Below, piece after piece: positions 2,243-6,429 of a stretch of 64,000 nucleotides of DNA. Every line of letters starts with the position of its first letter. The first letter of the stretch is position 1. The stretch covers positions 1 through 64,000 of the forward strand of contig CAIXPF010000094.1 of NCBI GenBank assembly GCA_903921205.1. Direction: 5' to 3'. The position numbers were made by a program, and so were the translations under genes. Source of the DNA: an uncultured Acidimicrobiia bacterium (GTDB lineage Bacteria > Actinomycetota > Acidimicrobiia > Acidimicrobiales > CAIXPF01). The notes below the pieces were generated by a model. It saw only the letters and a program-made list of their open reading frames with translations, had not been told where the DNA came from and did no database searches.

Positions 2243-2713
2243 TCAGTCGATGAATCGGCTGGCGAACCCGATACGGAGCGCCGGCCGGAAGAACAACTCC
2301 ACGCCCTGATAGAGCGTGCCGAGGATCCGGTCGAGCTCGACCTCGTCCACCGTGCCGTTGGGCACCCGGCCCATCAGGTAGATCGCGTCCTCGGCGCCGA
2401 TGGCGAACGTTGCCCCGCGCAACTTCTCGTTCCGACGCAACAGGTGCTCGAACAGCTGCGCGTGGTTCTCTTCCGGCGCAGGCATGAGGTAGGTCTCATA
2501 GGCCAAGGAACGTTGACCGAGTTCCAACCACAGCGCGGACAGCGGCTTCTCGTCGCCGGCGACCCGGATGACCCAACGCCGCTCCTGACCGTCGCGTGCG
2601 ACCGACTGCACCAGCGGATTCTCCGCCGCCTGCTTCGCCAGCCAGGTCTCGATCCGGTCGCACAGGACCAGCAGTTCCAGCTCGCTCGAAGGCGGGCGCC
2701 CGTCGTCGATCAC
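2243..2713 (-). CDS. YbjN domain-containing protein
   Basis: GTG start (VIDDGRPPSSELELLVLCDRIETWL...) overlapping mshA stop; YbjN/T3SS-chaperone-like fold, and position next to mshA as in other actinobacteria. Confidence 0.75.
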   Translation of the reverse strand: MIDDGRPPSSELELLVLCDRIETWLAKQAAENPLVQSVARDGQERRWVIRVAGDEKPLSALWLELGQRSLAYETYLMPAPEENHAQLFEHLLRRNEKLRGATFAIGAEDAIYLMGRVPNGTVDEVELDRILGTLYQGVELFFRPALRIGFASRFID

Positions 2714-3930
2714 GCTCGTCCTCCCCCACACTCGACCAGCGAGCGAGACGTCAGATCGGCGTAGAGCCGGCGAAGCCTGGCCGCGGTCGTCGACCACGTA
2801 TAGCCGCGGGCCTTGGTGGCCGCCTGACGGCCGAGCGAACCGGCGAGCTCCGGAGAGTCGATGATCCGCCGGACCGCCGCGGCATAGGCGACCGGGTCAC
2901 GGCCATCGACCAGCAGGCCGGTGCGGCCGTCATCGACCAGCGTGAGAAGCCCACCGACCGCCGCTGCCACCACCGGCGTACCGCAGGCCGCCGCTTCGAG
3001 CGCCACCAACCCGAAGGACTCCGAGCGGCTCGGCACGAGGCAGACGTCGGCCGCCCGGTAGTAGCTCGACAACAGATGATGCGGTTGCGGCGGCCGGAAG
3101 ATCACCCGGTCCTGCAGACCGGCTCGGGCCACCAGCTCGTGGCAGTAGCGCTCGTGATCGGACCCCTCCGCCCCACTGGGGCCACCCACCACCACCAGAC
3201 GAGCGGTCGGCAGATGGGCCAACGCCTCGATGGCGACGTCGAGGCCCTTGAGCGGTTGGATCCGACCCACGAACAGCAGGAGCGGCCCGCCCTCGGCGAC
3301 CCCGAGTGCCGAACGGGCGCCGCGCCGGTCGCCCGGGGCGAAGAACGCATGATCGACGCCGGGTGGCACGATCTCCACCCGGGCCGGATCGGCACCGTAG
3401 AAGCGTTCGAGCTGCGCCGCTTCCTCGGCCGAGTTGGCGAGGATGGCGTCGCTGCAGCGGATGACCTCGGTCTCGGCGTCGATACGCCGCTGCGGCTCCT
3501 CGTCGCCGGTCTCCGCCTTGACCCGGGCCAAGGTGTGGAAGGTACAGACCAGCGGCAGGTCCAGGGCGTGCTTGATGCCGTGCGCGGCGACACCCGACAA
3601 CCAGTAGTTGGCATGGAGCGCGTCGGTCGTGCCGTCCTGTTCGATGTGTCGCTGCACCCAGCGCTGGAACGGCTCGACCACGTCGGGCAGGTGTTCCTTG
3701 GGCAGATCGGTTGGGCCGGCCGGCACGTGCACCACCCGGAACCCGGGCTCCACCTCGACCACCTCGGGCAGGTGATCGGCCCAGCGCCGCACGTAGACGT
3801 GGCAGTTGACCCCGGCCTGCGCCACGGCGGCAACCAACTCGCGCACGTACACGTTCATGCCACCGCTGTCGCCCGATCCCGGCTGGGCGAGCGGCGAGGT
3901 GTGCATCGAGATGACCGCAAGCGTGTCCAT
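2710..3930 (-). CDS. mshA: D-inositol-3-phosphate glycosyltransferase (mycothiol biosynthesis)
   Basis: MDTLAVISMHTSPLAQPGSGDSGGMNVYVREL, LFVGRIQPLKGLD, VPSRSESFGLVALEAAACGTPVVAA; alternative TTG start at 3942. Confidence 0.9.
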   Translation of the reverse strand: MDTLAVISMHTSPLAQPGSGDSGGMNVYVRELVAAVAQAGVNCHVYVRRWADHLPEVVEVEPGFRVVHVPAGPTDLPKEHLPDVVEPFQRWVQRHIEQDGTTDALHANYWLSGVAAHGIKHALDLPLVCTFHTLARVKAETGDEEPQRRIDAETEVIRCSDAILANSAEEAAQLERFYGADPARVEIVPPGVDHAFFAPGDRRGARSALGVAEGGPLLLFVGRIQPLKGLDVAIEALAHLPTARLVVVGGPSGAEGSDHERYCHELVARAGLQDRVIFRPPQPHHLLSSYYRAADVCLVPSRSESFGLVALEAAACGTPVVAAAVGGLLTLVDDGRTGLLVDGRDPVAYAAAVRRIIDSPELAGSLGRQAATKARGYTWSTTAARLRRLYADLTSRSLVECGGGRA

Positions 3931-3938
3931 CAGGGGCC

Positions 3939-4382
3939 TCAACCGCCGCTCCCCTGTTCGGATTCCCGCTGCTCGAAACCTGAAGGCACCGCCGCTGACC
4001 CTAGCGAGGTTGCCGCGTCACTCGCTCCCGAACCTTCACGGAACGACTCGTAGACGTGCAACAGGGTCCGTTTCTGCGCCTCGGAGAGCTCGGGAGCCCG
4101 CCGGATGGCCTCGGCGAGATCCACCGCAGAACCGGACGTGCCGAGCATTCCGGCGCGCACGTAGAACGCCTCGACCGAGACGTCCAACGCCGCGGCGAGC
4201 CGCCGCAGCACGTCGGCGGAGGGCCGACGCAGACCCCGTTCGACCTGGGACAGGTACGGGTTGGAGACGCCGGACAGCTCCGACAGCTTGCGCAGCGAGA
4301 GGCCGGCAAGGCGCCGCTGCTCCCGGAGGAACGCGCCGACAACCTGACCGCCATCCCCGGGCTCAGCCACGACGTCGTCCAC
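3939..4382 (-). CDS. XRE-family helix-turn-helix regulator
   Basis: LREQRRLAGLSLRKLSELSGVSNPYLSQVERGLRRPSADVLRRLAAALDVS; GTG start inferred at 4382. Confidence 0.88.
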   Translation of the reverse strand: MDDVVAEPGDGGQVVGAFLREQRRLAGLSLRKLSELSGVSNPYLSQVERGLRRPSADVLRRLAAALDVSVEAFYVRAGMLGTSGSAVDLAEAIRRAPELSEAQKRTLLHVYESFREGSGASDAATSLGSAAVPSGFEQRESEQGSGG

Positions 4383-4456
4383 CCTCGTATCCGCGTGCCT
4401 GCCACGACGCCAAGCCACGCACCCGCAACCGGCCACGCCGCAAGGCGTGGCGGCGA

Positions 4457-5032
4457 TCAGCTCAGGAAGCCGTCCACGGTGATCTCGCCGCGTTCGTACC
4501 GCCCCGAGAGCTCGACCTTGAGCAGGTCGATCCGCTCGTGCAGCTCGCGGCGCATCCGGGAGAACTCCCGCTCGAGCTGACGCAGCCGATCGGCCACCGC
4601 GACCACCTCGGCCTCGCTACGACGATCGAGGTCGGCGAGGGCGGCACCGCCCCCCACGGCGTTGTCGATGGCGACGAGCAGCTCCTGGGCCGGCATGTCG
4701 GGGGCGAGGTCGATGGCCCGGCTCGTCGGCCCACCGCTGCGAGCGTGATCGTCCGCGAGGATCTCGGGAAGGCGCTCGACGAGGTCGTGCAGGCTGTTCG
4801 CATCGGCGACACCACCGGCGTCACGACGGCGCAGCTCGCTCTCGACGATGTCGAGGTGGCCCTGCAGGATCCGCCGGGCGAAGGACACACCCAGCTCGGC
4901 TTCCTCGCACTCGGCGCGCATGGCCCGGATGTCGGCGACCGGCCGATCGTCGAGGCCGGTGAGGTAGTCGTCGCGCAGCACCCGATCCGAGAGCGGAAAG
5001 CTCACCAGTCCTCCTAGAACCCGGATCGTCAT
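4457..5032 (-). CDS. RsiG-like c-di-GMP-binding anti-sigma factor ('aerial mycelium formation' family)
   Basis: Two copies of E-x3-S-x2-R-x3-Q/H-x3-D: ELGVSFARRILQGHLD and EREFSRMRRELHERID, in a helical protein of RsiG size. Confidence 0.8.
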   Translation of the reverse strand: MTIRVLGGLVSFPLSDRVLRDDYLTGLDDRPVADIRAMRAECEEAELGVSFARRILQGHLDIVESELRRRDAGGVADANSLHDLVERLPEILADDHARSGGPTSRAIDLAPDMPAQELLVAIDNAVGGGAALADLDRRSEAEVVAVADRLRQLEREFSRMRRELHERIDLLKVELSGRYERGEITVDGFLS

Positions 5033-5164
5033 CGACCAACCTCCTCGGTGAGATGCATACGCCATCCAGGGTATCCGCCGTTACCCCATTCGAGACGCCA
5101 TCGTCGGAACTTGCACCCACGCACACCCGATGGTGGGCACCTGGCAGGCCCGGCCGGCCGGCAC

Positions 5165-6187
5165 TCAGCCGAACAGCAGCACCCACAGCGGGGCGAGCAC
5201 GATCAGGCTGTCGAGGCGGCGCAGACCCGGGGCGAAACCACCGGAGGGTGGCAGGGTGAGCGAACCCACCAGCCGGCCCAGCGGACAGGCCACCGCCGCC
5301 AACACGATCGCCGGCCACAACTGGTGGTCGGCCAGGGTGCCCGGCTCGAGCACCACGGCGGCGAAGCCCGCCGCCACCACCGCCACCGCACCCGCCAACG
5401 GCCCCTCGTACCAGCCGGCTGCGGTCGCACCGACGAGGTGATCGCCCGCGTCGTAGCTGCAGGCCAGCACGAACAACAGCACGGCCAACGCCGGGTCGAA
5501 CCCCGAGAACACCACCGGTACCGCCGCGGCCAGCCCGACACCCAGCCAACTCCGCACCGTCGTGGTGGCGCTCAGCACGTCGAACCCGCCGCCATGGACA
5601 CCGCCGAGCAGGCTGACCGCCACGGCGCCGAGGACGGCGACCCCGACCGCCCGCGAACTCGGCGCCACTGCCGCGCCGACCACCCCGGCGGCGCACAGCG
5701 CCGCCAACAACGGCCGGGTGCGACCGCCGGCCCGGCGCAGGGCGGCGGCGGTCTGGATCGCGCCGATGGCCGCGACCGGGGCGAAAACCGCCAGGGCCAG
5801 GTAGTGGCCGATCCACAACGACAGGCCGCCGACCAGGAACCACAGCAGCCCGAGCGGGACCTGTGGGCGGCCGGAATCGACCACGACCCCGAGCCGCTCG
5901 CGACGGCGGAGATCCTCGACCGACAGCTCTTCCCGACTCCGGGTGAGTCCCGGTGCCGGGTCGTACTCGGCCAGTTCGGCCTCGTCGAGCAGGGCATCGT
6001 CCACGATGAGCACCGGCGCCTCGGACGTTGCGGCGGCGACGGCGGACGGCCCGGAGCCGAACGCACCGAACAGTTCCTCGACGGTGGTCTCGCGCACCGG
6101 GCGCCTCCCCGGGCGGGTTGCCACGGCGGACCGCGTCGGTACGGCCCCCGAATCGGTCTTGCCCGGGTTCATCACTCCCGATTCCAT
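5165..6187 (-). CDS. multi-TM protein, possibly CdsA (phosphatidate cytidylyltransferase)-like
   Basis: Hydrophobic C-terminal two thirds; SYDAGDHLVGA and PPSGGFAPGLRRLDSLIVLAPLWVLL resemble CdsA DxGAYxxG and LPGHGGxLDRxDSLxxAP regions. Confidence 0.6.
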   Translation of the reverse strand: MESGVMNPGKTDSGAVPTRSAVATRPGRRPVRETTVEELFGAFGSGPSAVAAATSEAPVLIVDDALLDEAELAEYDPAPGLTRSREELSVEDLRRRERLGVVVDSGRPQVPLGLLWFLVGGLSLWIGHYLALAVFAPVAAIGAIQTAAALRRAGGRTRPLLAALCAAGVVGAAVAPSSRAVGVAVLGAVAVSLLGGVHGGGFDVLSATTTVRSWLGVGLAAAVPVVFSGFDPALAVLLFVLACSYDAGDHLVGATAAGWYEGPLAGAVAVVAAGFAAVVLEPGTLADHQLWPAIVLAAVACPLGRLVGSLTLPPSGGFAPGLRRLDSLIVLAPLWVLLFG

Positions 6188-6429
6188 CACCCTCCCGAAA
6201 CCGGCGGAAGCACCGCGACCTCGTCGCCGTCGGCGAGCACATCGGCCGCCACCGCCGGCTCCCCGTTGCACCAGATCCGGCAGCCGGCGAGCACCTCGGC
6301 AAAGCCCGCACCGTACCGACCAACCGCCAACTCCAGGGCGGCACCGACGGTGTCCGCCTGCACCTCGTCGCGTCCCACACCGGCCGCGACGCGGGCGGCG
6401 GCGAACAGACGGAGGGTGACCTGGGCCAT
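6187..6429 (-). CDS. MoaD/ThiS-family ubiquitin-like protein
   Basis: MAQVTLRLFAAARVAAG...NGEPAVAADVLADGDEVAVLPPVSGG, C-terminal GG. Confidence 0.9.
   Translation of the reverse strand: MAQVTLRLFAAARVAAGVGRDEVQADTVGAALELAVGRYGAGFAEVLAGCRIWCNGEPAVAADVLADGDEVAVLPPVSGG

What the first reader, a model, noticed from the sequence alone, without database searches (positions are those of the whole stretch)
4457..5032. RsiG-type anti-sigma homologue with two c-di-GMP signature motifs
Seen: ELGVSFARRILQGHLD matches E-x3-S-x2-R-x3-Q-x3-D exactly, and EREFSRMRRELHERID matches E-x3-S-x2-R-x3-H-x3-D (Q to H) on a second predicted helix. Established: this motif pair defines the c-di-GMP site of Streptomyces RsiG, which sequesters sigma WhiG. 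Inference: a c-di-GMP-armed anti-sigma switch exists in this lineage, with one half-site altered. No WhiG-like sigma is in the window, so its partner is unknown and may not be a sporulation sigma.
Basis: partly seen in the sequence, partly recalled or inferred. Interest (0 to 1): 0.8.

Follow-up and report, generated by a model that had tools for sequence, protein, structure and literature searches.

The report
Twin-motif RsiG anti-sigma in Acidimicrobiia
The gene encodes a genuine member of the known RsiG family, proteins that use the messenger c-di-GMP to hold the sigma factor WhiG inactive; its likely WhiG partner is elsewhere in the same genome, and in this lineage, which has flagellar genes, the switch may control flagella.

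Summary
The minus-strand gene (4457-5032) carries both motifs, matches Pfam RsiG (E=1.9e-21, two stretches) and S. venezuelae RsiG (E=4e-12). Its AlphaFold model finds only RsiG chains in the PDB at E<=0.001. It is a new member of a known kind: twin-motif RsiGs are already reported in Acidimicrobiales. The H-for-Q change is not a special alteration. Among 86 Acidimicrobiia RsiGs the second-helix position is H 54, F 16, Y 9, Q 7, and a single-motif RsiG with H at this position binds c-di-GMP (published). The likely partner, missing from the window, is in the genome: one WhiG-type sigma (265 bits, next to dprA), plus 15 GGDEF matches. Across 198 class genomes RsiG tracks the WhiG-type sigma (119 both; 3 and 4 alone). 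The most interesting lead is flagellar: the genus has flagellar genes, and this is the genome's only FliA/WhiG-family sigma. fliC, flhB, motA, fliD and flgN carry conserved TCAR-N16-GCCGWWR-like promoters. FlgM is reported lost from later flagellated actinobacterial classes and is not at its usual place here. RsiG may therefore replace FlgM as a c-di-GMP-armed anti-sigma of flagellar genes. This is inferred, not shown.

The parts
4457..5032 (-). rsiG: twin-motif RsiG-family anti-sigma factor, 191 aa from the ATG at 5032 (alternative start GTG at 5005)
   Evidence: Pfam PF22802 E=1.9e-21; PDB 6pfj_T E=4.3e-12; Foldseek top four = S. venezuelae RsiG chains
4850..4897 (-). c-di-GMP motif 1, ELGVSFARRILQGHLD (E-S-R-Q-D), on predicted helix 32-71
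   Evidence: sequence; model helix H32-71; S and R invariant in 86 of 86 class members
4526..4573 (-). c-di-GMP motif 2, EREFSRMRRELHERID (E-S-R-H-D), on predicted helix 140-180
   Evidence: sequence; model helix H140-180; H is the class majority
5003..5018 (-). CTAGGAGG followed by GTG: nucleotide-conserved ribosome-binding-site-like sequence before an internal in-frame GTG
   Evidence: identical CTAGGAGG in four genomes of the genus
3939..4436 (-). XRE-type helix-turn-helix protein immediately downstream of rsiG; a homologue is found near rsiG in 45 of 86 loci
   Evidence: Pfam HTH_3 E=1.6e-15; conserved neighbourhood
2710..3942 (-). MshA-like family-4 glycosyltransferase; a homologue is found near rsiG in 70 of 86 loci
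   Evidence: Pfam Glycos_transf_1 E=1.4e-38; synteny

Best explanation
The gene encodes a twin-motif RsiG expected to act as a monomer. When c-di-GMP is high, the antiparallel pair of helices 32-71 and 140-180 binds a c-di-GMP dimer through the two motifs, Q57 and H165 stacking on guanine. Armed in this way, it sequesters the genome's only WhiG-type sigma factor (G000:C12:38797-39468). When c-di-GMP falls, WhiG is released and transcribes genes with TCAR-N16-GCCGWWR-type promoters. RsiG family membership, presence of the sigma and presence of diguanylate cyclases are shown. The RsiG-WhiG-c-di-GMP complex is inferred from homology and co-occurrence. Control of flagellar genes is inferred from promoter footprints and the absence of another FliA-family sigma above cut-off.
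For: Family and fold. Motif S and R invariant across the class at both sites (one sequence gapped at the second S), position 4 always Q/H in motif 1 and H/F/Y/Q in motif 2. Partner: one FliA/WhiG-family sigma above the curated cut-off, 265.6 bits, next best 112 bits; best PDB match is S. venezuelae WhiG, E=1.7e-85, followed by FliA at 1e-50; flanked by dprA and an M23 peptidase gene. Two of the three published WhiG c-di-GMP contacts (K57, R62) are kept and G61 is S (contacts from PMC8325347). Co-occurrence in 198 class genomes: 119 both, 3 RsiG only, 4 WhiG-type only, 72 neither, Fisher 6e-45; five genomes with only a weaker FliA-type match lack RsiG. c-di-GMP supply: 15 GGDEF matches, several with intact GGDEF/GGEEF and EAL signatures.
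Against: No binding, interaction or expression data can be obtained here. Co-occurrence counts are not corrected for shared ancestry. WhiG residue G61, which contacts ribose in S. venezuelae, is S in this genome (also in one other of 31). rsiG and whiG are unlinked. The canonical TAAA-N14-16-GCCGATAW promoter occurs once in the genome, so the local promoter consensus had to be inferred.
Confidence: 0.85

Rival explanations
1. The RsiG-WhiG pair controls the flagellar regulon of this genus: RsiG takes the place of FlgM as anti-sigma28, so that c-di-GMP, rather than hook completion and FlgM export, gates flagellin expression. (A more specific version of the best explanation.)
For: Flagellar genes in G000-G003: FlhA about 790-800 bits, flagellin, FliD, FlgK, FlgN, FlgE, FliG, CsrA and FliW confirmed by Pfam in G003. 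Only one FliA/WhiG sigma above cut-off in G000. G004, the one family member without RsiG, also lacks FlhA and flagellin. Promoter-like footprints with 16-base spacing at fliC (3 genomes), flhB (4), motA (3), fliD (3) and flgN (3); spacing 16 gives the most genes, 5 versus 1.1 for shuffled motifs (5 of 300 shuffles reach it), and at higher stringency 2 versus 0.07 (1 of 300). No flgM between csrA and flgN, and no FlgM-like C-terminal pattern in the fetched flagellar loci. PMC10746217 reports FlgM missing in the later flagellated actinobacterial classes. No PilM, so no Rubrobacter-like type IV pilus target, in the genus.
Against: The W and R positions of the consensus were loosened after fliC had been seen. 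Five of 27 genes is a small sample. RsiG also occurs in class genomes whose flagellar status was not tested. FlgM was not searched for genome-wide. The six best genome-wide promoter matches are not flagellar.
Confidence: 0.45
2. The RsiG-WhiG pair controls a small non-flagellar regulon (cell surface, peroxidase, glycogen), and flagella are run by another sigma factor.
For: Six exact TCAA-N16-GCCGATA sites in G000, five of them also in G003, including upstream of a lipoprotein, two small unknown proteins and a starch/glycogen synthase; the sixth precedes a DyP peroxidase. In G005 such a site lies just before rsiG.
Against: No other FliA-family sigma above cut-off in the genome; flagellar promoters share the same spacing. 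The two readings are not exclusive.
Confidence: 0.3
3. The protein is an RsiG descendant that has lost c-di-GMP control because of the H substitution and acts as a constitutive anti-sigma or in another role.
For: Motif 2 differs from S. venezuelae at the stacking position; the second-site D is also lost in a few relatives.
Against: H is the class norm and a published single-motif RsiG with H binds c-di-GMP with Kd 25 uM (PMC8325347); the other nine motif residues are intact.
Confidence: 0.05

Closest known systems
Streptomyces venezuelae RsiG (PDB 6pfj, 6pfv)
   Same: Twin motifs on two long helices, alignment reaching the conserved C-terminal end, top Foldseek match
   Different: H instead of Q in motif 2; about 31% identity; host has flagellar genes; partner sigma unlikely to serve sporulation
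Rubrobacter radiotolerans and Conexibacter woesei single-motif RsiG (PDB 7lq2-7lq4 for Rubrobacter; PMC8325347)
   Same: Same c-di-GMP motif; C. woesei carries H at the stacking position and binds c-di-GMP
   Different: Those have one motif, and R. radiotolerans RsiG works as a homodimer; the inferred Rubrobacter targets are type IV pili, whose PilM is absent in this genus
FlgM, the secreted anti-sigma28
   Same: Would act on the same family of sigma factors (FliA/WhiG)
   Different: Unrelated protein and signal (from general knowledge); controlled by export rather than by c-di-GMP

Membership tests
RsiG (Pfam PF22802) | HMM match above curated cut-off | tested here: met
   76 bits against a cut-off of 27, two stretches
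RsiG (Pfam PF22802) | Two E-x3-S-x2-R-x3-[Q/H]-x3-D motifs | tested here: met
   Residues 46-61 (Q) and 154-169 (H)
RsiG (Pfam PF22802) | Antiparallel coiled coil carrying one motif per helix | tested here: met
   Predicted helices 32-71 and 140-180; Foldseek top four are RsiG chains over about 165 columns, E 6e-5 to 3e-4, TM 0.56-0.70; pLDDT 72 overall, rmsd about 5 A; antiparallel packing is judged from this match, coordinates were not inspected
RsiG (Pfam PF22802) | A WhiG-type sigma factor in the same genome | tested here: met
   265.6 bits, best PDB match WhiG E=1.7e-85
RsiG (Pfam PF22802) | WhiG residues that contact c-di-GMP (K57, G61, R62 in S. venezuelae) | tested here: inconclusive
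   K and R kept, G is S
RsiG (Pfam PF22802) | Binds c-di-GMP and then WhiG | not testable with these tools
   Needs purified proteins
WhiG/FliA sigma (TIGR02479), the proposed partner | Score above the curated cut-off of 189.6 | tested here: met
   265.6 bits
WhiG/FliA sigma (TIGR02479), the proposed partner | Directs transcription of flagellar genes in this genus | tested here: inconclusive
   Conserved promoter-like footprints at five flagellar genes; modest statistics

The most novel reading that the evidence does not exclude
In flagellated Acidimicrobiia lacking FlgM, RsiG is the anti-sigma28 of the flagellar system, so that c-di-GMP directly blocks flagellin transcription through sigma sequestration. 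This would be a third output of the RsiG-WhiG switch, after sporulation and type IV pili, and would explain how these bacteria gate late flagellar genes without FlgM.
Probability: 0.4. Interest if true: 0.75.

Novelty: new member of a known kind. Interest (0 to 1): 0.45.

Why it matters
The c-di-GMP-armed RsiG-WhiG switch is published for sporulation in Streptomyces and inferred for type IV pili in Rubrobacter. A lineage with flagellar genes, a single WhiG-type sigma, RsiG, many diguanylate cyclases and no FlgM at its usual place would link c-di-GMP straight to the swim-or-stay decision by sigma sequestration, and would offer an answer to the reported loss of FlgM in later actinobacterial flagella. 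The class-wide alignment also widens the motif: the stacking position of the second half-site may be H, F, Y or Q.

Tried and rejected
Canonical FliA/WhiG promoter TAAA-N14-16-GCCGATAW: one match in the genome, upstream of another sigma-factor gene; not used. A WhiG-type promoter before rsiG: clear in G005 and in L146 (2 of 86 loci), not in this window, where a housekeeping-like TACCCT is the better candidate (by eye). Plasmid collection for RsiG: no match. Type IV pili as the target, as in Rubrobacter: PilM absent in the genus. The H substitution as a special change: rejected by the class alignment. A scan of genome contigs found only five relatives because its peptide patterns were narrow; the class-wide genome search replaced it.

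Full report
What was checked. The finding points to 4457-5032. The gene lies on the minus strand and reads 191 residues from the ATG at 5032. They are not chance: no other six-frame ORF of the window has even one copy, shuffled ORFs give 0.04 single copies per window, and none of 200,000 shuffles of the protein gives two. The start is uncertain, because an in-frame GTG nine codons further in is preceded by CTAGGAGG, identical at the DNA level in four genomes of the genus.

What it is. Pfam RsiG matches with E=1.9e-21 in two stretches. Among solved structures the best match is S. venezuelae RsiG, E=4.3e-12, over residues 43-201, followed by Rubrobacter RsiG over the first helix only. The AlphaFold model (mean pLDDT 72, six sequences) has long helices 32-71 and 140-180, each carrying one motif. 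Foldseek against the PDB returns four S. venezuelae RsiG chains (E 6e-5 to 3e-4) and then nothing better than E=0.36. So it is a twin-motif RsiG. PMC8325347 already reported twin-motif RsiGs in 3 of 4 Acidimicrobiales species; here the family is found in 122 of 198 genomes of the class.

The H-for-Q position. I extracted RsiG from 86 loci and read the ten motif positions. Serine and arginine never vary at either site (one sequence is gapped at the second serine). Position 4 is Q 57 / H 29 in motif 1 and H 54 / F 16 / Y 9 / Q 7 in motif 2. PMC8325347 described the Q-to-H change as frequent in the first motif, argued that H makes the same stack on guanine, and measured c-di-GMP binding (Kd 25 uM) by a single-motif RsiG with H. 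The change in this protein is therefore ordinary for its class. The F and Y variants of the second half-site, all able to stack, do not appear in that paper's main text.

The partner. The window has no WhiG, but the genome has one FliA/WhiG-family sigma above the curated cut-off (265.6 bits; the next match has 112). Its best PDB match is S. venezuelae WhiG, E=1.7e-85, against 1e-50 for FliA. It sits beside dprA and an M23 peptidase gene; from memory, not tested here, this resembles the Streptomyces whiG neighbourhood. Of the published WhiG contacts to c-di-GMP, K57 and R62 are kept and G61 is serine; 29 of 31 class members have K-G-R. In 198 class genomes RsiG and the WhiG-type sigma occur together in 119, RsiG alone in 3, the sigma alone in 4, neither in 72 (Fisher 6e-45, not corrected for ancestry). 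Five genomes with only a weaker FliA-type match all lack RsiG. c-di-GMP enzymes are present: 15 GGDEF matches, several with intact signatures and EAL motifs.

What it may control. The four genomes of the genus have FlhA and flagellin; in G003 Pfam confirms flagellin, FliD, FlgL, FlgK, FlgN, FlgE, FliG, CsrA and FliW. The family member without RsiG (G004) has neither FlhA nor flagellin. PilM is absent from the genus, so the Rubrobacter type IV pilus target does not apply. A loose sigma28 pattern gave an excess of TCAA-N16-GCCGATA sites: six exact ones in this genome, five also found in G003 before the same genes, including a lipoprotein, two small unknown proteins and a starch/glycogen synthase; the sixth precedes a DyP peroxidase. 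Upstream of flagellar genes, sites of the same spacing are conserved at fixed distance while the spacer differs: fliC TCAA-N16-GCCGTAG in three genomes, flhB TCAG-N16-GCCGAT(G/A) in four. With TCAR-N-GCCGWWR, at least 9 of 11 matched and at least three genomes agreeing, a spacing of 16 gives five genes (flhB, motA, fliD, fliC, flgN), the most of any spacing from 12 to 20; shuffled motifs average 1.1 (5 of 300 reach 5). At 10 of 11 it gives two against 0.07 (1 of 300). The W and R positions were loosened after fliC had been seen, so these figures flatter the motif somewhat.

FlgM. The usual flgM place between csrA and flgN is empty in G003, and a FlgM-like C-terminal pattern was not found in the fetched flagellar loci. 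PMC10746217 reports that three later flagellated classes lack FlgM along with FlgF/FlgG; from its wording these are inferred to include Acidimicrobiia. It does not mention WhiG, and a library search for RsiG with flagella found no such proposal. The reading that RsiG took over the anti-sigma28 role under c-di-GMP control is therefore open and testable.

Shown, inferred, unknown. Shown: family membership, motif conservation, a WhiG-type sigma, flagellar genes, diguanylate cyclases, co-occurrence. [quoted passage not shown] Unknown: actual binding, actual regulon, the role of the conserved downstream XRE-type regulator.

Noticed in passing
window 2243-6429; L095-L098, L130-L209: The neighbourhood rsiG - XRE helix-turn-helix gene - MshA-like glycosyltransferase - YbjN, with a MoaD/ThiS-like gene upstream, recurs across Acidimicrobiia (glycosyltransferase near rsiG in 70 of 86 loci, MoaD 68, YbjN 48, helix-turn-helix 45). 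Whether the regulator is functionally tied to RsiG is unknown.
   Followed up: partly
L218:934, 4399; L219:5946; L234:10020, 13491; L235:10172; L238:6640, 12664; L236:6664; L244:958: A palindrome (T)AGGACNNNNGTCCT(A) recurs in the flagellar gene clusters, including upstream of fliC and between csrA and a VanY-like gene, in three genomes: a likely operator of an unknown flagellar regulator.
   Followed up: partly
L130-L209: In 25 of 86 Acidimicrobiia RsiGs the stacking position of the second motif is F or Y, a variant of the c-di-GMP half-site not mentioned in the main text of PMC8325347.
   Followed up: partly
L073 (G005:C119), 7 bases before the rsiG start: A TCAA-N16-GCCGATA site directly precedes rsiG in G005, suggesting feedback of WhiG on its own anti-sigma in that genus.
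   Followed up: partly
L066 (G000:C171:2451-2477) and L077 (G003:C19): A starch/glycogen synthase gene carries a conserved WhiG-type promoter-like site; the abstract of PMC9530166 links c-di-GMP to glycogen breakdown in Streptomyces.
   Followed up: no
L099 (JAHWKC010000221.1): An RsiG homologue (37% identity) lies in a MAG labelled Proteobacteria; the contig is short (4687 bases) and is probably misbinned actinobacterial DNA.
   Followed up: no
class-wide genomes: Many class genomes carry a second, weaker FliA-type sigma (about 190-223 bits) besides the WhiG type; RsiG follows the WhiG type, not this one.
   Followed up: partly
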